From Roseococcus pinisoli (GTDB lineage Bacteria > Pseudomonadota > Alphaproteobacteria > Acetobacterales > Acetobacteraceae), in the NCBI RefSeq assembly GCF_018413645.1, contig NZ_JAHCDA010000002.1, forward strand, positions 1,257,676 to 1,321,675: a DNA stretch of 64,000 bases, in the 5' to 3' direction. Shown here in pieces: positions 53,714 to 63,591 of this stretch. A model generated the notes under the pieces. It was not told the origin of the DNA. It saw only the letters and a program-made list of their open reading frames with translations, and did not search any database. The translations under genes were made by a program, and so were the position numbers. How positions within the stretch are numbered: the stretch's first letter is position 1; each line of letters begins with the position of its first letter.

Positions 53714-56185
53714 ATGGACCAGCTATACAGAGAGGTGCAGCCCGCATCGGCTCGGCAATCTCGCGGCTGGCTGCTTCTTCATCGCGGCCTGCTAATTGTC
53801 CTGGGCCTCCTTGGGGTAGGACAAGCTGTCCTCGGTGGTTGGCTGCTGGCGCTCGGCGGGTCGCCCATGCACTTGGTCTGTGGCCTGCTGCTGCTGATCG
53901 CCGCTTGGCTCGGGCTCCGCTCCACCGGCCGGGCGGAGGTATTGGCGAGCGGCCTCGCCGCCGCGGTCGCCCTGGGCTGGGCGCTGACGGAAATTGCCGG
54001 CAAGGGCTGGATGCCAAGCTGGATTTTCGACTTCGCCGGCCGCGTGGCGCTGCTGCTGATCCTCCTGACGGCGATGCTGGCGGTCTCCGTCATGGCGCGC
54101 CATCGGCCGGGCCACTGGGCGCGCAGGGCCGTCGGCGGAGCGATGGCGGCCTGCCTTCTGCTGGTGAGCGGGCTTGTCGTACTGCTGTGGGAGAGGCCGC
54201 AGGGCCCGGCCCAGATCGCCGCCCACAGCACCCTGCCTTCCACCGCGAACGAGGTGACCAATACGGCCCAGAATTGGAGTGCCTATGCCGGATCGAATTT
54301 TGGGCGCCACTACTCGCCGGCCGCCCAAATTACCCCCGCCAACGTGCACGGGTTGCAGGAGGTGTGGCGCCACCGCTCCGGCGACACCGCGCCGAATGAG
54401 CGCGTGTTCTTCTCCTCCCAGAACACGCCGCTAAAGGTGGATGACACGCTGTATCTGTGCAGCAGCAGCGCGCAGGTCTTCGCCCTGGACCCCGCCACCG
54501 GCGAGCAGCGCTGGCATTACGATCCTGCTACTCCGGCGCGCGCCATGGAATCGCTGTTCAGCGTCGCCTGCCGCGCCGTCGGTCATCACGGCGTGCGGGG
54601 AGAGGCCGCGTGCAGCGAGCGCATTTTCACCGCCACTGCGGACGGCCGGCTCATTGCCCTGGATGCGCGCCGGGGGCAGCCCTGCACCAATTTCGGCACC
54701 GCCGGCACCGTCGACCTGACGGAGGGGATGGGTCTGCGCGATCCTGGCTTCGCCTCCAACACCTCCGGCCCCGCGGTGGTCGGCGACTTCGTCATCATCG
54801 GCCAGCAGGTCAGCGACAACCAGCGGCGCGACGCCCCCTCCGGCGTCGTACGCGCCTATGACGCGCGCAGCGGCGCGCTGGCGTGGGCCTGGGATGCGCA
54901 TCGCCCGGATGCACGGGCGCCGCTGGCGGCAGGCGAGATCTATCCGCGCGGCACACCCAATGTGTGGACGGTGATCTCGGCCGATGAATCACTCGGCTTG
55001 GTCTTCCTGGGGACCGGCAACTCCGGCGCGGATCACTGGGGTGGCGACCGGACGGAGGAAGAGGACCGCTACACCGCCGCCATCGTGGCGGTGGAGCTCG
55101 AGACGGGCGCCACACGCTGGTCTTTCGCCACGGTCGATCACGACCTTTGGGACTACGACATCGGAGCACAGCCGACGGTGCTCGATATCCCGATCGACGG
55201 GCAGGTGCGTCGGGCCGTGCTGCTCGGCACCAAGACCGGATCGCTTTTCCTGTTCGATGCGGCGACAGGGGAAGCCCTGCGTCCCATCGAGCGGCGCCCG
55301 GCCCCGCAGGGGGAGACGCTGACCGGCGAGCGTTTGTCGCCGACTCAGCCGCAATCGACCTTTTATCCGAATTTTGCCGCGCATCCGGGGCAGGATCCGG
55401 AACGGATTGATGCGCGCCACACCTTCGGCATCTCGCCGCTGGATGCTGCCTGGTGCCGCATCCAGTTCCACCGCATGCGGTATGAGGGGATCTACACGCC
55501 ACCGGTTTCAACCGGCAACGGCATGCTGCTGTTCCCGGGGACCATCGGCGGGCTCAACTGGGGTGGCGTCGGTGTGGATACCGGCCGGCTTATCGCCATC
55601 ACCAATCACAGCCGTCTGCCCAACCATGTGGTGATGGTGCCGCGTGCGCAGGTGACCGACGTCGCGGTGGGCGATGGCGGGGCGCGGCCGGACCAGGTCG
55701 TGGCGCCACAGGCCGGCACGCCCTACGGCGCCATCCGGCCGATCTGGTTCTCGCCGCTCAACATGCCCTGCATCGCGCCGCCCTGGGGCTACTTGGCCGC
55801 AACCGATCTCGTCTCCGGCGATTTGCTATGGTCGCAGCCGCTGGGCACCGCCTTCGACACCGGCCCACTCGGCCTGCCGCTGCGCCTTCGCATCCCGGTC
55901 GGCACCCCGAACATCGGGGGACCGCTGGTGACGGGCAGTGGCCTGACCTTCATTGGTGCCGCGCAGGACAACTACCTGCGCGCCTTCCAGACGGAAACGG
56001 GCCGGTTGCTCTGGTCGGCGCGCCTGCCGGCGGGCGGCCAGGCCTCGCCAATGACCTATGTCCATGAAGGTCGGCAATATGTGGCGATGGTCGCAACCGG
56101 CCATTCGCGTCTGGAAACGGCACCAGGCGATCACCTGGTGGTCTATGCGTTGGGAGGAGAAGGCGAAGTCGGTGCGCGACCTTGA
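53714..56185 (+). CDS. Membrane-bound PQQ-dependent dehydrogenase (glucose/quinate/shikimate type)
   Basis: The 823-residue protein has five N-terminal membrane helices (about residues 18-165) and a PQQ beta-propeller (about 185-815). Motifs are NWSAYAGSNFGRHYSPAAQI, then TPANVHGLQEVWRHRSGD, the TVDHDLWDYDIGAQPTVLDI block, and QASPMTYVHEGRQYVAMVATG near the end. Membrane helices deliver electrons to ubiquinone; the active site faces the periplasm. Substrate could be glucose, quinate or shikimate. The gene lies in the decayed island, with an IS scrap upstream and a terminator hairpin downstream, so it may be acquired. Confidence 0.93.
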   Translation: MDQLYREVQPASARQSRGWLLLHRGLLIVLGLLGVGQAVLGGWLLALGGSPMHLVCGLLLLIAAWLGLRSTGRAEVLASGLAAAVALGWALTEIAGKGWMPSWIFDFAGRVALLLILLTAMLAVSVMARHRPGHWARRAVGGAMAACLLLVSGLVVLLWERPQGPAQIAAHSTLPSTANEVTNTAQNWSAYAGSNFGRHYSPAAQITPANVHGLQEVWRHRSGDTAPNERVFFSSQNTPLKVDDTLYLCSSSAQVFALDPATGEQRWHYDPATPARAMESLFSVACRAVGHHGVRGEAACSERIFTATADGRLIALDARRGQPCTNFGTAGTVDLTEGMGLRDPGFASNTSGPAVVGDFVIIGQQVSDNQRRDAPSGVVRAYDARSGALAWAWDAHRPDARAPLAAGEIYPRGTPNVWTVISADESLGLVFLGTGNSGADHWGGDRTEEEDRYTAAIVAVELETGATRWSFATVDHDLWDYDIGAQPTVLDIPIDGQVRRAVLLGTKTGSLFLFDAATGEALRPIERRPAPQGETLTGERLSPTQPQSTFYPNFAAHPGQDPERIDARHTFGISPLDAAWCRIQFHRMRYEGIYTPPVSTGNGMLLFPGTIGGLNWGGVGVDTGRLIAITNHSRLPNHVVMVPRAQVTDVAVGDGGARPDQVVAPQAGTPYGAIRPIWFSPLNMPCIAPPWGYLAATDLVSGDLLWSQPLGTAFDTGPLGLPLRLRIPVGTPNIGGPLVTGSGLTFIGAAQDNYLRAFQTETGRLLWSARLPAGGQASPMTYVHEGRQYVAMVATGHSRLETAPGDHLVVYALGGEGEVGARP

Positions 56186-56372: not shown

Positions 56373-56627
56373 GTTACCCCACTGCCGAGGAACGCCCACC
56401 TACAGCCGATCAGAATATTGAAAAGATTGGCGGACCCGAATGGATTCAAACCATCGACCTCTGCCTTCGGGGGGCACTTAGTAGCACTCTCCGGGGCATG
56501 ATCACTCAGGATCGACAGGTCAAATCCCTTGGATAACCGCCATTTCCTTCATTCCCACCCATGATCGATGTTGCTCATACATTCTGACAGCTGTTACCCC
56601 AGCGTTACCCCGGCGCGGCGGGGTAAC
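56373..56627. repeat. Iterated GTTACCCC boxes around the att-like site
   Basis: GTTACCCC occurs at 56373-56380, 56593-56600 and 56604-56611, and inverted at 56620-56627. The third and fourth copies form a perfect dyad with an 8-base spacer. Two copies share the longer CCAGCGTTACCCC. Short repeats on either side of an att core are the usual arm-type binding sites of tyrosine integrases. Confidence 0.5.
56428..56477 (-). pseudogene. tRNA-Arg(CCG) 3' fragment (att-like site)
   Basis: The minus strand reads an encoded CCA, discriminator G, acceptor 3' strand CGGGTCC, a complete T-arm (GATGG-TTTGAAT-CCATT) and the 3' half of an anticodon arm (CCGAAGGCAG). The anticodon is CCG, as in tRNA-Arg. The 5' half of the tRNA is missing, and loop position 33 reads C instead of T, so the gene is not functional. 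It lies 170 bases ahead of the integrase start, the usual place of an integration site. Confidence 0.8.
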
Positions 56628-56645
56628 AAAGGCAGAGGTCATTCC

Positions 56646-57983
56646 ATGGCGACCGCGAGCGGCAAGATCGGGCTGCGCGAGATCAGGGCAATCGCCCCCG
56701 GCAGCGAGCTTTTCGACGGTCCCGGCGGGCTGCCCGGCTTCGGTACTCGCCGGCGAGCAGGGCCCGCCGTCTCCTACTTCGTCATGTTCCGAACGGCGGA
56801 GGGCCGGCAACGCCGGTTCACGATCGGGACCCATGGCGCACCCTGGACGCCGGAGGAGGCCCGCGCCAAGGCCAAGGCGCTGCTCGCCGAAGTCGTGAAG
56901 GGTGAGGATCCTTCAGCGCGGAAGCGAGAGGTCCGAGAGGCGCCAACTGTCGCGGAGCTCTGCACGTCCTATCTCGAGGCCGCGGAGGCGGGCAGGCTGC
57001 CCACGCGACGTGGCGGGACGAAAAAGGCCAGCACCATCGCCACAGACCGCAGCCGCATCGACTCCCACATCCTGCCGCTGCTCGGCTCCATGAAGGTCCG
57101 GGCAGTCACCCAACGCGACCTCGACGACTTCCTGCAGGACGTCGCGGCGGGGAAGACCCATCGGCGCGAGCATCTCGGTCGATCCAGAGCCTATCGGAAC
57201 GTCCGTGGCGGGATGGGCACGGCGTCGCGCACGATGGGGTTGCTTGGCGCCATCTTCACCTACGCTCTCCGCATGGGCCTGCGCGACGATAACCCCACTC
57301 AGGGCGTGCTGAGGCCCGCCGACAGCAAACGGGAGCGCCGCCTCTCTGCCGACGAGTAGGCCCTTGGCGACGGCCTCAACAGGGCCGCGGCGGTCATTCC
57401 GGCGACCGAGGAGGGCAAACCCGACAAGGCCGGCATGTGGCCCTCCGCGATCGCCGCGGTGCGTTTCCTCGCGCTGACGGGATGGCGTAGCGGCGAGGCT
57501 ATCGGCCTAACCTGACGGGAGGTGGATCTGGCGCGGCGCACGGCCCGTCTGGGCGACATGAAGACGGGCGCGAGCACGCGGCCCCTGCCCCATGCCGCCT
57601 GCGCCGTCCTGACCGCCCAGCAGGCGCTGACGGGCGGCAAGGTCGATGGGCTGGTCTTCCCCCCTTCTCGCGGCGACGGGACCATGAGCGGATTCGCTGG
57701 CTTCATGGCGCGCATCGTGAATCTGGCAGATCTGCCGCCGGAGATCACTGCGCACGTCCTGCGGCAGTCCTTCGCCAGTGTGGCCGCCGACCTTGAGCTT
57801 TCAGAAGTCACCATCGCGTCGCTCATCGGCCACAAGGGCGGCGGCATCACCCGTCGCTACATCCATTCGGCCGACACTGTGCTGCTCGCCGCGGCCGATA
57901 AGGTGGCGGGTGAAGTGGCGTGGCAAATGGGTGAGGCCCCGCCAGAGGGCCAGGTGGTGCAACTCACCCCACGGGGCGCATAG
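56646..57983 (+). pseudogene. Tyrosine integrase, inactivated by two in-frame stops
   Basis: The reading frame is continuous over 446 codons except for TAG at 57357-57359 and TGA at 57513-57515. Around the first the protein reads LSADE[stop]ALGDGLN; around the second EAIGLT[stop]REVDLAR. Family wording suggests Tyr and Trp originally. The rest is intact: an N-terminal DUF4102-like domain (REIRAIAPGSELFDG...GFGTRRR), a core-binding domain, and catalytic motifs GWRSGEA (Arg), HVLRQS (His-x-x-Arg) and GHKGGG...RRYIH (Tyr). It is non-functional unless stops are read through. It lies next to the tRNA-Arg fragment. Confidence 0.88.
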
Positions 57984-58046: not shown

Positions 58047-59168
58047 CTACTTGGCCCGTAAAGCGCGCACCCTTGCTGCGGCCCCCAGGACCTGTTCCTC
58101 GCTGAGGACTCCCTCAGCGATCGCCGCGCGCACCCAACCCACCGCGCGTTGCGGCAGAAGCGGATCATAGCCGAACAGGTTCTTGATCATGATGAGATCG
58201 TTGCCGGCGGCAATGGCCTGCACGAGGGCCTCCTTCCGACCCATGAGATGGTTGACCGCCTTCATGTCGAGATCGTCCGTCACCACCACGCCGCGATAGC
58301 CCAGCCGCTCCCGCAGCAGGCCGGTCACGATCGGCGCCGATATCGTCGCGGGCCGGCCATCCGGCGCCACCTGATCGAGCCGCAAATGCCCCGTCATCAC
58401 CATGGGCGGGGGATGATTCGACGCGATCAGCCGGACGAAGGGCTCCAACTCGTCCTCGGTCCAGGTCGCCGAGATATCAGCCGCGTGATAGTGGCTGTCG
58501 CCCGTCGAGCGGCCATGGCCAGGAAAGTGCTTCGCCGCACAGATGATGCCGGTGCCCGAGAAACCCTCCACGAAGGCTTCCCCATAGCTCGCGATGAGCT
58601 GGGGATCGGTGCCGTAGGCACGCCCGGAAATGCCGATCGACGGATTGGTCGGATCGTCGACATCGACCACGGGTCCCAGATTCACGTCGAAGCCAACGGC
58701 CGCCAACTCGCGGCCCGCCTGGGCATAGATGCCGCAGGCCTCGGCCGGCGACAGCCCCGCCGCGACATCGCGCGCCGATGGCAGGCGCGTCATGCCATGC
58801 GCCTCGGTAAGCCTCTGTACGGTGCCGCCCTCGTGATCGATGGCCAGCAGCGGTGCCCAACCCTCCCCAGCGCCGAAGAGGCCGAGCAGGCCCTTCAGCT
58901 CCTCCATCGTGCCGACGTTCTGGCTGACGAAGAAGACCGCACCGACCTGAGCGCGACGCGCCTGCCGGGCCAGCAGCCGGGCGGAGGGCGATGCCGTGCT
59001 GGCGCCGTAGAAGCCCACCAACAGCAGATCCCCCACCGCCGCAGCCAGCTTGTCGCGGTGCCGGAACCAGCCGAGCCAGGCGAGCGGATAGGCCAGCATG
59101 CCGATGGCCACGCCCAGGCCGGCGCTGGCGGCGCGCCCTGCCCGCCGCCAGCGCTGAGGAATTTTCAT
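58047..59168 (-). CDS. GH3-family beta-N-acetylhexosaminidase-like enzyme with N-terminal membrane anchor
   Basis: The 373-residue protein is a NagZ-like glycoside hydrolase. Motifs are LAIDHEGG, GISGRAYGTDP, KHFPGHGRSTGDSHYHAADI (the catalytic His/Asp loop) and VVVTDDLDMKAV (nucleophile Asp). Cytosolic NagZ starts directly with the barrel; this protein has a basic leader and a hydrophobic segment (about residues 15-35, GLGVAIGMLAYPLAWLGW). That points to a membrane-tethered, probably periplasmic enzyme. It starts at an ATG overlapping the stop of the Mur-NRPS gene (ATGA), so it is co-translated with it. Confidence 0.88.
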   Translation of the reverse strand: MKIPQRWRRAGRAASAGLGVAIGMLAYPLAWLGWFRHRDKLAAAVGDLLLVGFYGASTASPSARLLARQARRAQVGAVFFVSQNVGTMEELKGLLGLFGAGEGWAPLLAIDHEGGTVQRLTEAHGMTRLPSARDVAAGLSPAEACGIYAQAGRELAAVGFDVNLGPVVDVDDPTNPSIGISGRAYGTDPQLIASYGEAFVEGFSGTGIICAAKHFPGHGRSTGDSHYHAADISATWTEDELEPFVRLIASNHPPPMVMTGHLRLDQVAPDGRPATISAPIVTGLLRERLGYRGVVVTDDLDMKAVNHLMGRKEALVQAIAAGNDLIMIKNLFGYDPLLPQRAVGWVRAAIAEGVLSEEQVLGAAARVRALRAK

Positions 59169-62100
59169 GCGTCTGTCTCGACGTGCTCGAAAGCCGCTTC
59201 CACCCGCCGCATCAGGTGATGGGCCAGGAACTGTACCGCAGGCTCAATGCAGGCGTTGCCGTGAGGCCCTGGGATCAGATCGATGCTGACACCGCCGGGC
59301 ATTGCCGCTTCATAGGGCACAAGGCCCGGCCCATCGGGCCGCAAGGGATTCAGAAAGCTGTCCTCCGCACAGATCATGGCGACGCGCCCGGGATAAGGTT
59401 GGGGGCGGCCGGGCTCGATGAGCACCATCAGCGGTACCGGGCGCCCCTCTGCGGAAAGCTGTTCGGCAATGTTCTGAACGATGGTGCCCCCTTGGCAGAC
59501 ACCGGCCAGCAGGACCGGACCTTCCGGCGCAATCGCTGCGATCTCCTCGGCGTAACGGGAGGCGATCTGGCGGATGCTGCCTGGCCCGTGATCGATCACG
59601 AGATGACCGGAGCGCATCCCATGCACGCGGAAGGCCGGTGAAAGGCGCGCCGCCAGGGCGGTGAACTCCTCCTCCATCTGGCAGCACAGGAAGATATCGC
59701 GCCGGGCCTCGGGGGAACCCAGGGTGGTGATGAGGCTTTCGGGAGAGACGCGCACACCAGGCCAGTGCCCGCAAAGATCGCGCATGCGCCGATAGATGCG
59801 ACTTGCCGTGAAGCCCTGCGCGCCGTCCGCGATACCGTCACGCTGCCAGAGCAGATCCTCCAGCTGCGCGGCCATCTGAGGGAGCGTACCGATCCGTCCG
59901 AAATAGCCAGGCGGCACGACGACGCAGAAGCGTTCCTCGACAAGCTGAATCAGGATCAGCGAGGCAAGGGAGTCGCCGCCAAGCGCGGCAAAGCGATCAA
60001 GCATGCCGACCGGATCCGGGAGATCCAGCGCCTCCTGCCAGAGCGGGGCCAGGCGCTGCTCGATCTCGGTCTGCGGCGGCCAGTATTCCGTCGCGCGGAT
60101 GATGCTGCGGCCACCATGTTCCGCGAGCAGCTTCTGGCGATCCTTCTTCCCGCTCGGCGTGAGGGGAATCCTGGGCACGCGCTGGATACGGGAGGGCAAG
60201 GCGCTTTCCGGCAGCCATTCCGCGAGCCGGCGCGACAGGGCGGAGATATCGAGCGCACGATCATCCGTCGCCTGCACGAAGCAGGTCAGCAGAGGACGCG
60301 GCCCCTTCGCGATGCAGACGGCAGCATCGGCCACGCCGTCCTCGCGCAGGACGACGCGCTCGATCTCGCCGAGCTCGATGCGCACGCCATGCATCTTCAC
60401 CTGGGTGTCGGCACGGCCAATGAAGTGCAGCGCGCCGTCCTCGCCGCGCCGGACCATGTCGCCGGTGCGATAGACGCGCAGGAGGCGGCGCCCCATGGGC
60501 GCCTGAACGAAGCGCTCCGCCGTTTCTTCCGGTCTGCCGAGATATCCCGAGGCCACGCCTGGTCCCGCGAGGCACAGCTCGCCGAGCTCACCCCTACCGA
60601 CCGGCTGCAGCGCCTCGTCCAGCACATGGGCTTCCACATGGCCCAGCGCCGTGCCGATCGTGACCTCGGCACCCGGTTCGCACGGGGCGGCCGTGGCATA
60701 GATCGTCGCCTCCGTCGGACCATAGACGTTGAAGAAGCGCCGGCCCGGGGCCCATTCCGCGACCAACTCCGGCGGGCAAGGCTCACCGCAGGCGATGATG
60801 CAGCGCAAATCTGGCAGCGCCCGCGAACGCGCGCTCGCGAGCAAGCTCGGTGTGATGGAGAGATGAGTCACGCCCGCCCGCTCCAGCGCATCAGCCAGGC
60901 GCTCCCCGCCCAGCGGCCTCGCGCCGGCCACCGACAGCGCACCGCCGCCGGCCAGCGTGCCGCAGATCTCCGCCAGCGATACGTCGAAGCTGATGGAGGT
61001 ATTGAGCAGCATCCGCGCCCCGCGGCCGGTCCCGAAGCGTTGCACCGTGTCGCGCAGCAGGGCGGCCAGCGCCGCGTGGTCGATGCGGATCCCCTTCGGA
61101 TATCCGGTCGATCCCGAGGTGAAGCAGATATAGGCGCCGCCGCTTCCTCGCGGTGCAGGTGGCACCTCACCGCCCAGGGCACGCAGCGCCGCGACGTCGT
61201 AGGCGGGCCATGCGCCCATCGTCTCGCGTGCCACCAGCGCCGCGGCCCCGGCCTGTTCCAGCATATAGGCGCGGCGCGCCTCCGGCAGCGCGAGGTCGAG
61301 CGGGAGATAGGTACCGCCTGCCTTCATCACGCCCAGCAAGGCGACGGCCAGTTCCGCGCCGAGCGGCAGCGCGACACCGACCACCGTGCCTGCCAGCCCG
61401 CGTGTCGCGAGGCCGGCAGCAAGCTCGTCGCTGGCGCGATCGAGTTCGGCATAGGACAGCGCGCCGTCGCGCCCGACCAGGGCTAGCTCTTCCGGCCCGG
61501 CTCGTGCGGCGGCACGGAACATCGCGACGAAGCTCTCCGCGGGGCGCAAGGCTTCCACGACGCGCTGCGTCCAGCGCCGCGGCACGAGCGCCTTCGACGG
61601 CGCTGCCGCCACCTCCGTCTGCAACTGCTGCAGCATCTTCCCGGCGACGCCCGTCATGCCGGCGCCGCCCATGACCAGCAGGAGATCGCCGGCCGCAAGG
61701 TCATGTCGCGCATGGGCGACAAGTTCCCCGGCATCCTCGCGTTGCACGGCCGCGATGCCGAGGCGCTGCAGCCCTTCGGCGATGGCGGTGCTGCCGGCCG
61801 ATTGCGCGGCCTCGCCGTCCCCGTCCACATCGAGAAGCAGCACCTGGTCGGCCTCGGCGAGACTCGTCACGAATTCCGCCTGCAGCCGCTGAAGGCGCGA
61901 GTGCAGCAAGGGCTGGAAGGCCGCAACCAGGCGACGATCCGGCGCAACGGCGCGTGCCGCGCGCAAGGTCGCGGCGACCTCGGCTGGGTGATGGGCGTAG
62001 TCGTCCACGATGCGGATGCCCGCGGCCTCGCCGATCTCCTGCCAGCGGCGCGCGACGCCCGTGAAACGCTCCAGGCCCCGGGCCATGACCTCCAGGCCGA

Positions 62101-62950
62101 TGCCCAGCGCATGGCAGGCAGCGAGGGCCGCCAGGGCGTTGCGGCGCATGTGATCGCCGGGCTGGCGCAGCGCGATGGGCCCGAGCTGCCTCCCCTCGAT
62201 GCGCGGGGCAAAGGGCGCGGGCCCGGGTTCGGCGGAAACGGCGCAGCCCGGATCGAGCCCGAACCACGTGACCTTGCCCTCCGGTAGCCCGAGGCGGGCG
62301 ATGCCGGGATCCTCGCCGAAGGCAGCGATCCGCTGCGCCCGGCGGGCGAAGGCGGCGAAGGATTCCTCCAGCGCGGCCTGCGAGGCGTAATGGTTGACGT
62401 GCTCGTCATCGACGTTGGTGAGGACGGCGATGTCGGGGTTCAGGCTGTCGAGGTTACGGAAGGCCTCGCAGGCCTCGGCGACGAAGAGGTCCTGGCCGCC
62501 CGGACGCGCGCGCCTTCCATCCAGGCAGGGGATATCCGCGCCGAGCGCAAAGCCGGGATCAATGCCGGCTTCGTCCAGGATGCAGGCTATCATGCCGCTC
62601 GTCGTGGATTTGCCATGCGAGCCCGCGACCATGACGGCGCGACGGCCTTCCCGCAGCAGGTCGAGGCATTCCGCGCGGCGCAGCAGCGGAATGCGGCGGC
62701 GGCGCGCACCCTCCAGCTCGGCATTGCCGGCGGGGATCGCATCGCTGACCACGACCAGCTCGGCGCCATCGAGCTGGGCCTCGTCGTGATCCTCGGCGAT
62801 CCGCGCGCCTTCCCGCACGAGGCTCTCGATGATCGCCGTTCGCGCCCGATCGCTGCCCGTGACCCTGCGGCCGGAGGCCAGCAGATATTGCGCGAGGCTT
62901 GCCATGCCCGCGCCGCCAATTCCCACCAGATGGATATGCCTGGGCAGCAT
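59165..62950 (-). CDS. Four-domain MurC-like ligase / NRPS adenylation / carrier / thioesterase-like protein
   Basis: The 1261-residue protein combines four folds. (1) A MurC-like ligase (1-450): IHLVGIGGAGMASLA, P-loop GSHGKSTT (110-117) and DDYAHHPAE (316-324). (2) An NRPS adenylation domain (465-945): TSGSTGYPKG (611-620), FDVSLAEI (655-662), NVYGPTEATIYAT (741-753) and PLTPSGKKDR (929-938). (3) A carrier domain with GGDSL, phosphopantetheine Ser994. (4) A thioesterase-like alpha/beta hydrolase (1085-1250) with GVCQGG, Cys1152 at the nucleophile position, Asp1197 and His1230. No condensation domain is present. It overlaps ydcF by one base and the GH3 gene by four, so all three are one operon. 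The product is unknown; the inference is a ligase-made amide. Confidence 0.9.
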   Translation of the reverse strand: MLPRHIHLVGIGGAGMASLAQYLLASGRRVTGSDRARTAIIESLVREGARIAEDHDEAQLDGAELVVVSDAIPAGNAELEGARRRRIPLLRRAECLDLLREGRRAVMVAGSHGKSTTSGMIACILDEAGIDPGFALGADIPCLDGRRARPGGQDLFVAEACEAFRNLDSLNPDIAVLTNVDDEHVNHYASQAALEESFAAFARRAQRIAAFGEDPGIARLGLPEGKVTWFGLDPGCAVSAEPGPAPFAPRIEGRQLGPIALRQPGDHMRRNALAALAACHALGIGLEVMARGLERFTGVARRWQEIGEAAGIRIVDDYAHHPAEVAATLRAARAVAPDRRLVAAFQPLLHSRLQRLQAEFVTSLAEADQVLLLDVDGDGEAAQSAGSTAIAEGLQRLGIAAVQREDAGELVAHARHDLAAGDLLLVMGGAGMTGVAGKMLQQLQTEVAAAPSKALVPRRWTQRVVEALRPAESFVAMFRAAARAGPEELALVGRDGALSYAELDRASDELAAGLATRGLAGTVVGVALPLGAELAVALLGVMKAGGTYLPLDLALPEARRAYMLEQAGAAALVARETMGAWPAYDVAALRALGGEVPPAPRGSGGAYICFTSGSTGYPKGIRIDHAALAALLRDTVQRFGTGRGARMLLNTSISFDVSLAEICGTLAGGGALSVAGARPLGGERLADALERAGVTHLSITPSLLASARSRALPDLRCIIACGEPCPPELVAEWAPGRRFFNVYGPTEATIYATAAPCEPGAEVTIGTALGHVEAHVLDEALQPVGRGELGELCLAGPGVASGYLGRPEETAERFVQAPMGRRLLRVYRTGDMVRRGEDGALHFIGRADTQVKMHGVRIELGEIERVVLREDGVADAAVCIAKGPRPLLTCFVQATDDRALDISALSRRLAEWLPESALPSRIQRVPRIPLTPSGKKDRQKLLAEHGGRSIIRATEYWPPQTEIEQRLAPLWQEALDLPDPVGMLDRFAALGGDSLASLILIQLVEERFCVVVPPGYFGRIGTLPQMAAQLEDLLWQRDGIADGAQGFTASRIYRRMRDLCGHWPGVRVSPESLITTLGSPEARRDIFLCCQMEEEFTALAARLSPAFRVHGMRSGHLVIDHGPGSIRQIASRYAEEIAAIAPEGPVLLAGVCQGGTIVQNIAEQLSAEGRPVPLMVLIEPGRPQPYPGRVAMICAEDSFLNPLRPDGPGLVPYEAAMPGGVSIDLIPGPHGNACIEPAVQFLAHHLMRRVEAAFEHVETDA

Positions 62951-63591
62951 CAGAATCCCCCGATGTCGCCCTTCTGGGCGTAAGTGCCGATCGCGCTGAG
63001 CTCACGGAGGACATAGGCCTGCCCGCCTTCAGTCTCCCACCAGGTCGTGGCGAGGAAATCGTCGGGTTCCTGGGAGGGCTGCATGACGAGCCGGAGATGC
63101 GCGGGCCAATGCCGCCGCGCCGTCATGAGGGCACGACGCGCGTGGTAGGGCTTGCTGACGATGGCCACACGGCGGATGCGGTCCCAACCGATCCGCTGCT
63201 CAATGATGGAGGCAGAAAAGACGAAATTCTCTCGGGTATTGGTCGACTCCGTCTCCAGAAGGATCGCGCTCTCGGGAACGCCGCGCGCGACGGCATAGTC
63301 ACGAAACAGGACGGCTTCCGGCACCGGCTGCGGCGCGGGGCCGTGACCGCAGACCATGATCACCGGGGCAAAGCCACGGGCATGGAGCGCGATCGCCGGG
63401 TCCATGTTCGTCGGCGTCGGGCAACCCAGGACAAAGCAAAGGTCGACAGGCTCCGGCAGATCCTCGACGAAAAGGAAGCGCGTGATCGCCTCTCTCGATG
63501 CCAGGAGGTTCGGGTCCGACGGCGCGGATTGGCCTGCTTCAGCCGGCTTGGTGCGCGGGAGATATGCGCGCAGGCGCTTCAGGAACAGCAA
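62950..63591 (-). CDS. YdcF/DUF218 family protein
   Basis: The 213-residue protein has the DUF218 core: DLCFVLGCPTPTNMDPAIALHARG, ESTNTRENFVFS and IVSKPYHARRALMTARRH. Related proteins (YdcF, SanA, ElyC) act in envelope and peptidoglycan-precursor metabolism. It lacks a clear signal peptide. Its TGA overlaps the ATG of the Mur-NRPS gene (TGATG), so it is the first gene of the operon. Its job in this pathway is inferred from context. Confidence 0.88.
   Translation of the reverse strand: MLFLKRLRAYLPRTKPAEAGQSAPSDPNLLASREAITRFLFVEDLPEPVDLCFVLGCPTPTNMDPAIALHARGFAPVIMVCGHGPAPQPVPEAVLFRDYAVARGVPESAILLETESTNTRENFVFSASIIEQRIGWDRIRRVAIVSKPYHARRALMTARRHWPAHLRLVMQPSQEPDDFLATTWWETEGGQAYVLRELSAIGTYAQKGDIGGF

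What the first reader, a model, noticed from the sequence alone, without database searches (positions are those of the whole stretch)
59165..62950. MurC-like ligase fused to an NRPS adenylation-carrier-thioesterase module without a condensation domain
One 1261-residue protein carries a MurC-like ATP-dependent amide ligase, an adenylation domain with motifs A3 to A10, a carrier domain (Ser994) and a thioesterase-like domain, with no condensation domain. Standard NRPS logic needs a condensation domain to make a peptide bond. The Mur ligase fold makes amides by acyl phosphates and could replace it: it would activate a carboxylate (in MurC, UDP-MurNAc) and join it to the amine of a carrier-bound amino acid. 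The P-loop and DDYAHHP motifs are intact, but the usual EADESD-like loop reads EACEAF. The fusion and the substrate are, as far as I know, not described; I cannot search for it.
Basis: partly seen in the sequence, partly recalled or inferred. Interest (0 to 1): 0.93.

Follow-up and report, generated by a model that had tools for sequence, protein, structure and literature searches.

The report
Cell-wall ligase fused to peptide synthetase
One bacterial protein joins a cell-wall-building ligase to part of a peptide-antibiotic assembly machine that lacks its usual bond-forming domain; the ligase likely makes the bond instead, which would be a new way for bacteria to build molecules from a cell-wall sugar.

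Summary
Confirmed: window 59165-62950 (minus strand) encodes one intact 1261-residue protein: a complete MurC-type ligase (1-445), an adenylation domain (478-940), a carrier domain (Ser994) and a small Cys-type thioesterase (Cys1152). It has no condensation domain, and none was found in this genome. It is not an isolated oddity: 78 other aligned proteins carry the same four parts. In nine loci a DUF218 gene directly precedes the fusion; a NagZ-like glycosidase follows in five of the eight readable ones. The cassette is rare and, by identity contrasts, horizontally moved. Seven of seven carrier genomes searched keep a separate MurC. Mur catalytic residues and the main UDP contact are conserved, but two of the five residues that contact the incoming amino acid in MurC (His376, Arg377) are replaced almost throughout. 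Best explanation (inferred, untested): the adenylation domain loads a small amino acid (tentatively glycine) on the carrier, the Mur domain joins UDP-MurNAc to its amine, and the Cys thioesterase releases the product. Product and role are unknown. Five literature searches aimed at such a fusion showed none.

The parts
59165..62950 (-). fusion gene: MurC-type ligase / adenylation / carrier / Cys-thioesterase, 1261 aa
61616..62950 (-). [not shown]
62459..62476 (-). EACEAF, residues 159-164, in place of MurC EADESD
61904..61909 (-). Leu348-Leu349, at the positions of H. influenzae MurC His376-Arg377 (contacts of the incoming amino acid; position match inferred from motif spacing)
60131..61519 (-). 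adenylation domain, residues 478-940; Asp656 and Lys935 (positions 235 and 517) kept in 81 of 81; pocket read as D V A S I C V I Y K
59867..60058 (-). carrier (PCP) domain, residues 965-1028, attachment site Ser994
59168..59833 (-). thioesterase, residues 1040-1261: nucleophile Cys1152 (GVCQGG), Glu1179, His1230; model of residues 1036-1261 pLDDT 94.4; 11-residue loop where NRPS thioesterases have a lid
62950..63591 (-). DUF218 protein, directly upstream, overlaps the fusion start by 1 base; true start not settled
58047..59168 (-). GH3 glycosidase, NagZ-like (KHFPGHG....DSH kept), overlaps the fusion end by 4 bases; extra hydrophobic N-terminus
56568..57359 (+). neighbour: tyrosine integrase, N-terminal parts only, in a separate ORF
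57522..57983 (+). neighbour: tyrosine integrase catalytic part in a second ORF, ends 63 bases from the 3' end of the GH3 gene

Best explanation
This protein is a fusion of a complete MurC-type ligase to an adenylation-carrier-thioesterase module with no condensation domain, and its ligase domain likely takes the place of that domain and would join the carboxyl group of UDP-MurNAc, activated as an acyl phosphate, to the amino group of an amino acid held on the carrier. Predicted steps: (1) the adenylation domain activates an alpha-amino acid (tentatively glycine in this subfamily) and loads it on Ser994; (2) the Mur domain phosphorylates the lactyl carboxylate of UDP-MurNAc with ATP and the amine of the aminoacyl-thioester attacks, giving UDP-MurNAc-aminoacyl-S-carrier; (3) Cys1152 takes over the chain and releases it to water or another nucleophile. 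The product would be a muramyl-amino acid, made apart from the housekeeping MurC. The DUF218 protein and, where present, the NagZ-like glycosidase would modify or trim it or its lipid-linked form. Shown: architecture, conservation, operon, separate MurC, no condensation-domain match in 5 of 7 carrier genomes, identity contrasts that speak for horizontal spread. Inferred: substrates, order of steps, product, role.
For: No condensation domain in the protein or in 5 of 7 carrier genomes including G000; the same search rang in 4 of 14 control genomes. Mur residues K130, E174, H199, R327, D351 (E. coli numbering) in 81 of 81 representatives, N296 in 80 of 81, UDP contact His71 in 77 of 81; Glu177, which stands in for the carbamoyl-lysine of other Mur ligases, in 81 of 81. 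Of the five residues that contact the incoming amino acid in H. influenzae MurC (PMC3060825, passages), the equivalents of His376 and Arg377 are kept in 1 and 0 of 81, while those of Arg380 (79 of 81), His348 (81) and Tyr346 (66 Tyr, 13 Phe, 2 Cys) stay; all five are kept in 14 of 14 ordinary MurCs. This fits an acceptor whose carboxylate is tied up as a thioester (inference). Adenylation Asp235 and Lys517 and carrier Ser in 81 of 81; thioesterase Cys and His in 79 of the 79 that have the domain. Mur, adenylation and thioesterase distances correlate at 0.92-0.97 over 88 rows. A separate MurC in 7 of 7 carrier genomes. DUF218 partner in 9 of 9 loci, GH3 in 5 of 8. Among the best-scoring solved adenylation domains are LgrA module 2 and DhbF module 1, both Gly-activating (PMC8150014 and PMC11253843, passages).
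Against: No biochemistry. The equivalents of Arg380, Tyr346 and His348 remain, so a free amino acid could still bind. N293, kept in 14 of 14 MurCs, is Met here and kept in only 14 of 81. The UDP contact at Leu51 varies (46 Leu, 20 Arg, 15 other of 81), though it varies in ordinary MurCs too and is a main-chain contact. The adenylation pocket varies (41 distinct nine-residue codes in 92 rows); the Gly enzyme AB3403 scores lower (195.3 bits) than the Phe enzyme GrsA (206.9; GrsA's substrate recalled), and DhbF's Gly pocket is closed by a Trp that is not in the window's pocket: glycine is a weak guess. G000 has one PF01648 match, in a 148-residue frame (AcpS size, recalled), so it is unclear what would arm the carrier. 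Two of 81 representatives lack the thioesterase. Two of 7 carrier genomes do have condensation domains elsewhere. One origin of the fusion is only weakly supported (79/62).
Confidence: 0.58

Rival explanations
1. The Mur domain works like ordinary MurC on a free amino acid, and the adenylation-carrier-thioesterase part then adds a second aminoacyl group (ester or amide) to the UDP-MurNAc-amino acid.
For: TIGR01082 murC cut-off passed; equivalents of Arg380, Tyr346 and His348 kept; the short loop where NRPS thioesterases carry a lid could admit a bulky acceptor (inference).
Against: Equivalents of His376 and Arg377 replaced in 80 and 81 of 81, EADESD replaced throughout; an ordinary MurC is already present in 7 of 7 carrier genomes searched.
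Confidence: 0.2
2. A muropeptide recycling or editing enzyme: it re-attaches an amine to UDP-MurNAc as Mpl does, with the NagZ-like glycosidase feeding it, and the carrier module supplies or charges the amine.
For: NagZ-like GH3 next door in 5 of 8 loci; Mpl, whose acceptor is a peptide, also lacks the His-Arg pair (E. coli Mpl; P. arcticus Mpl residues listed).
Against: Mpl model TIGR01081 150.8 bits, cut-off 388.7; no GH3 match at L037, L040, L043; rare, horizontally moved occurrence is unlike core recycling.
Confidence: 0.12
3. The Mur domain is a catalytically idle UDP-MurNAc sensor that gates the NRPS part.
For: N293 varies; conserved non-standard EACEAF loop.
Against: Catalytic Lys, Glu, His, Arg and Asp positions are kept in 81 of 81, not expected of an idle domain; no known amide-forming domain would then be left for the module in 5 of 7 genomes.
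Confidence: 0.05

Closest known systems
MurC (UDP-N-acetylmuramate--L-alanine ligase)
   Different: Fused to an NRPS module; His376 and Arg377 equivalents and the EADESD loop replaced; extra to the genome's own MurC
NRPS termination module (C-A-T-TE, such as SrfA-C or EntF)
   Same: Adenylation, carrier and thioesterase in the same order
   Different: A Mur ligase stands where the condensation domain would be
Mpl murein peptide ligase
   Same: MurC relative that joins UDP-MurNAc to a peptide rather than a free amino acid
   Different: TIGR01081 cut-off not reached; no NRPS part
DltA/DltC and AlmE/AlmF (adenylation plus carrier used on the cell envelope; carrier partners recalled)
   Same: Aminoacyl carrier chemistry on the envelope; DltA models and structures are among the hits, below cut-off; AlmE activates Gly and has a Cys near the alpha carbon (PMC11253843, passage)
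   Different: Those transfer the aminoacyl group; here the aminoacyl amine is predicted to be acylated by muramic acid
Lincosamide synthetase (PMC4351081, abstract start seen)
   Same: NRPS components used to make an amide with a sugar unit
   Different: There an amino sugar is joined to an amino acid; here the sugar acid would supply the carboxyl, through a Mur ligase
Cys-type thioesterases SulM, ObiF and AB3403 (PMC11298585, passages)
   Same: Cys nucleophile in a thioesterase fold
   Different: Acid is mostly Glu, after strand 6; no long lid between strands 6 and 7 in the model
Cyanophycin synthetase (Mur-like ligase fused to another ligase; description recalled)
   Different: No carrier protein; makes an Asp-Arg polymer (recalled)

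Membership tests
MurC | ATP/Mg catalytic residues K130, E174, H199, R327, D351 (list recalled; columns checked) | tested here: met
   81 of 81 representatives; 14 of 14 MurC controls
MurC | N293 and N296 (recalled as invariant) | tested here: inconclusive
   N296 80 of 81, N293 14 of 81; both 14 of 14 in controls
MurC | UDP contacts His71 and Ile88 (PMC3060825) | tested here: met
   His71 77 of 81; position 88 Ile 68, Val 13; third contact Leu51 varies, as it does in controls
MurC | L-Ala contacts His376, Arg377, Arg380, Tyr346, His348 (H. influenzae numbers) | tested here: not met
   His376 kept in 1 of 81, Arg377 in 0 of 81; the other three mostly kept (offset of 6 to E. coli inferred from motif spacing)
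MurC | NCBIfam TIGR01082 cut-off | tested here: met
   340.7 bits against 335.1 for the window protein
MurC | sole, housekeeping enzyme of the genome | tested here: not met
   separate MurC in 7 of 7 carrier genomes searched
MurC | makes UDP-MurNAc-L-Ala from free L-Ala | not testable with these tools
   needs enzyme assay
Mpl | NCBIfam TIGR01081 cut-off | tested here: not met
   150.8 bits against 388.7
NRPS elongation/termination module | adenylation domain with Asp235 and Lys517 | tested here: met
   TIGR01733 367.7 bits against 317.4; 81 of 81
NRPS elongation/termination module | carrier Ser | tested here: met
   81 of 81
NRPS elongation/termination module | condensation domain | tested here: not met
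   none in the protein; none in 5 of 7 carrier genomes
NRPS thioesterase | fold and Ser/Cys-acid-His triad | tested here: met
   type I thioesterases top the fold list; over 81 representatives Cys 79, His 79, Glu 73 or Asp 7; 2 lack the domain
NagZ (GH3 partner) | KHFPGHG....D(S/T)H motif and nucleophile Asp (recalled as defining) | tested here: met
   alignment with E. coli NagZ, 5 of 5 loci that have GH3
NagZ (GH3 partner) | NCBIfam NF003740 cut-off | tested here: not met
   149 bits against 207, window protein
DUF218 (ElyC/SanA) partner | Pfam cut-off and SanA triad Thr125, His149, Glu182 (PMC12176290) | tested here: inconclusive
   Pfam passed in the 3 of 9 tested: window 83.0, L012 86.3, L039 62.1, cut-off 27.6; Thr and His in 9 of 9, Glu not aligned

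The most novel reading that the evidence does not exclude
A new class of carrier-dependent muramyl synthetase: a mobile two- or three-gene cassette in which a Mur ligase has replaced the NRPS condensation domain, diverting UDP-MurNAc from the cell-wall pathway into a muramyl-amino acid that is either a dedicated alternative wall precursor or a secreted metabolite.
Probability: 0.5. Interest if true: 0.92.

Novelty: new variant of a known kind. Interest (0 to 1): 0.82.

Why it matters
Peptide bond formation on carrier proteins is normally the work of condensation domains. A Mur ligase doing it would be a second, ATP-driven solution, would connect peptidoglycan precursor metabolism directly with carrier-protein chemistry, and would give a genome-mining handle (EACEAF plus an adenylation domain) for muramic-acid-based natural products that databases now label as plain MurC. 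It is testable with purified protein and UDP-MurNAc.

Tried and rejected
Rejected: gene-prediction artefact or chimeric contig (the same four parts in 78 other proteins, and at eight other loci). Rejected: the fusion is the organism's housekeeping MurC. Rejected: condensation domain supplied from elsewhere in the genome for 5 of 7 carriers; not excluded for G1118 and Variovorax. Rejected: EACEAF as damage (Cys, Glu and Ala invariant in 81 of 81).

Led nowhere: the plasmid search found NRPS-part matches only, 0 of 109 records covering 80% of the query. Six pocket codes are in no paper of the library. The genome-collection scan gave only 3 loci. Metagenome contigs could not be scanned, so the neighbourhoods of the Chthoniobacterales and 1725-1808-residue variants are unseen. 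No structure of the whole protein was made (over the 1200-residue limit; two jobs only); domain docking is unknown. Two papers whose listing showed one 'Mur ligase' each (PMC7601586, PMC2812497) were checked by passage and hold nothing on such a fusion. An early note of mine called a short L043 ORF a possible GH3 remnant; its letters match the frame that overlaps the fusion's end, so L043 is counted as lacking GH3. The Mpl row was shifted at the EADE loop; one search shows Mpl has EADEYD.

Rows dropped: from the 87 best-ranked proteins I left out six short ones (P0033, P0079, P0082, P0085, P0086, P0087) for the Mur alignment and added 7 locus translations (88 rows; three of these repeat listed proteins). 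At 90% identity these are 81 representatives, 77 proteins and 4 loci. Four of the short ones were put back for (92 rows). The tree used 32 of the 88 fusion rows. The structure alignments used 46 of them plus the window piece. L043 is in the neighbourhood count but not in the 88 rows. L038 ends just after the fusion, so GH3 is counted over 8 loci, not 9. The genomes of L011 and L013 were not searched for MurC or condensation domains. Ranks below 87 were not aligned; two of them (P0089, P0091) list a partial Mur domain. Pfam was run on selected flanking ORFs only.
Full report

A family, not an accident. A protein search (1072 proteins at E <= 1e-60, 120 listed) found the same fusion under sources naming uncultured Roseococcus, Parvibaculum, Afipia, [Pseudomonas] carboxydohydrogena and Chthoniobacterales. 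A protein 98% identical to the window's is from an uncultured Roseococcus. Of the 81 long fusions 23 bear a name, and all 23 are called 'UDP-N-acetylmuramate--L-alanine ligase'. In one search, of the 87 best-ranked (the window's own included), 73 are Mur-A-T-TE, 6 have a further C-terminal extension, 2 lack the thioesterase, 4 lack the Mur part (822-903 aa) and 2 fragments were not aligned. Pairwise distances correlate at 0.967 (Mur with adenylation), 0.954 (Mur with thioesterase) and 0.924 (adenylation with thioesterase), so the parts have travelled together. The tree of 41 rows places 8 ordinary MurCs in one supported group (100/97); the 32 fusions form the other side of a weakly supported branch (79/62, 81% of bootstrap trees), which allows one origin but does not prove it.

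Not the housekeeping MurC, and horizontally moved. All 7 of the 7 carrier genomes searched hold a separate MurC. Between the window's genome and Variovorax, MurC is 48% identical but the fusion 73%; between the window's genome and G563 of the same family, MurC is 84% but the fusion 37%. In samples that each include the window's own genome, a full-length fusion was seen in 1 of 100 genomes of the family (the other matches there cover the Mur or the NRPS part only), 3 of 299 of the order, 1 of 385 of the class and 3 of 398 of the phylum. Two further searches around carriers gave 2 of 149 and 1 of 39. Eleven other genomes of the window's genus listed had no match. Among the flanking ORFs tested, mobile-element genes lie near the cassette at 4 of 9 loci: a tyrosine integrase in two ORFs in the window, an IS3-type integrase core in L043, an IS4/5-type transposase in L040, a serine recombinase in L038.

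The operon. At 9 of 9 loci (window, L011, L012, L013, L037, L038, L039, L040, L043) a DUF218 gene directly precedes the fusion; at 5 of the 8 loci where the other side is readable (window, L011, L012, L013, L039) a GH3 gene follows; no other neighbour recurs widely (Pfam on selected ORFs). In the window the overlaps are 1 base and 4 bases, which suggests coupled translation (inference). The GH3 proteins keep the NagZ motif (5 of 5); the window's misses the NCBIfam NagZ cut-off and has an extra hydrophobic N-terminus. Two loci without GH3 (L037, L040) share a methyltransferase-like gene on the opposite strand. DUF218 relatives SanA and ElyC act in peptidoglycan and enterobacterial common antigen synthesis in E. 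coli, and a Thr-His-Glu triad is needed in SanA (PMC12176290, passages). The cassette proteins keep Thr and His in 9 of 9; the Glu could not be aligned. They lack the strongly hydrophobic stretch of SanA and ElyC, so they are likely cytosolic.

The Mur active site. Counts are over 81 representatives below 90% identity, controls over 14 ordinary MurCs including E. coli. Catalytic Lys130, Glu174, His199, Arg327 and Asp351: 81 of 81. Asn296: 80 of 81. Asn293: kept in 14 of 81 only, a mark against full MurC likeness. UDP contacts (PMC3060825): His71 in 77 of 81, position 88 Ile 68 and Val 13, Leu51 variable in fusions and controls. Arg108, invariant in the controls but not in E. coli Mpl, is kept in 81 of 81. 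Glu177, which replaces the carbamoylated lysine of other Mur ligases: 81 of 81. PMC3060825 (passages) lists His376, Arg377, Arg380, Tyr346 and His348 of H. influenzae MurC as contacts of the incoming amino acid. By motif spacing these are E. coli His382, Arg383, Arg386, Tyr352 and His354. In the fusions His382 is Gln (50) or Leu (29), with 1 His and 1 Arg; Arg383 is Leu (79), Val (1) or Ser (1); Arg386 is kept in 79; Tyr352 is Tyr (66), Phe (13) or Cys (2); His354 is kept in 81. In controls all five are invariant. Loss of the His-Arg pair to a conserved Leu fits an acceptor whose carboxylate is a thioester, with the phosphopantetheine arm passing there. That is inference; the retained Arg386 argues for caution.

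The NRPS part. Best total scores among solved structures go to LgrA, whose second adenylation domain aligns better (278.7 bits) than its first (218.5). With the adenylation domain alone, DhbF module 1 (5u89) scores 252.6 and leads the chains matched by a single stretch. LgrA module 2 and DhbF module 1 activate Gly (PMC8150014 and PMC11253843, passages). Against this, the Gly enzyme AB3403 scores below GrsA (195.3 against 206.9), and DhbF closes its pocket with a Trp. The window's pocket, read by motif position from recalled GrsA numbering, is DVASICVIYK; across the family it varies. Glycine is only a first guess for this subfamily. The thioesterase has Cys and His in all 79 representatives that have the domain, and Glu (73) or Asp (7) as acid. 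Its model (pLDDT 94.4) matches type I thioesterases but has only 11 residues between the strands that usually flank a lid (lid position: PMC11298585, passage). Trp1063 (79 of 79) and Arg1067 (77 of 79) ahead of the core are conserved and unexplained.

Why the Mur domain is the likely bond-maker. With no condensation domain in the protein, and none found in 5 of 7 carrier genomes including this one, the known amide-forming catalyst on the chain is the Mur ligase. A phosphopantetheinyl transferase family member is present in 7 of 7, though only one in this genome.

Prior art. Five full-text searches of the held library were aimed at such a fusion: 0, 38, 487, 6 and 340 papers met the terms, of which 0, 20, 20, 5 and 15 were listed; titles and abstract starts showed none, and the two listed papers with a 'Mur ligase' mention have nothing on it (passages). 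The other five searches served other questions. Unlisted papers, subscription papers and preprint servers were not seen.

Verdict. The mechanism is the best-supported reading but untested, and the product is unknown.

Noticed in passing
window 56568-57359 and 57522-57983, plus strand: A tyrosine integrase in two separate ORFs (arm/core parts and catalytic part) next to the operon.
   Followed up: partly
P0055, P0066, P0068, P0069, P0070, P0071: Six of the 87 best-ranked homologues carry a shared C-terminal extension of 442-504 residues; in P0070 it matches Glyco_trans_1_2 (26.7 bits, cut-off 25), not matched in P0055 and P0066. It hints at a glycosylated product.
   Followed up: partly
P0072 and P0075: Variants without thioesterase; P0072 has a second adenylation C-terminal piece before its carrier.
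   Followed up: no
L037:8351-9205 and L040:6410-7261, plus strand: Related methyltransferase-like genes on the opposite strand at the 3' side of the fusion in two loci without GH3.
   Followed up: partly
window 59750-59764, minus strand (residues 1063-1067): Trp1063 (79 of 79) and Arg1067 (77 of 79) ahead of the thioesterase core, function unknown.
   Followed up: no
protein records listed: All 23 named long fusions are called simply UDP-N-acetylmuramate--L-alanine ligase, so automatic annotation hides the NRPS part.
   Followed up: no
window 53714-56185, plus strand: Membrane-bound PQQ-dependent dehydrogenase, just under its NCBIfam cut-off (810.3 against 832.65 bits).
   Followed up: no
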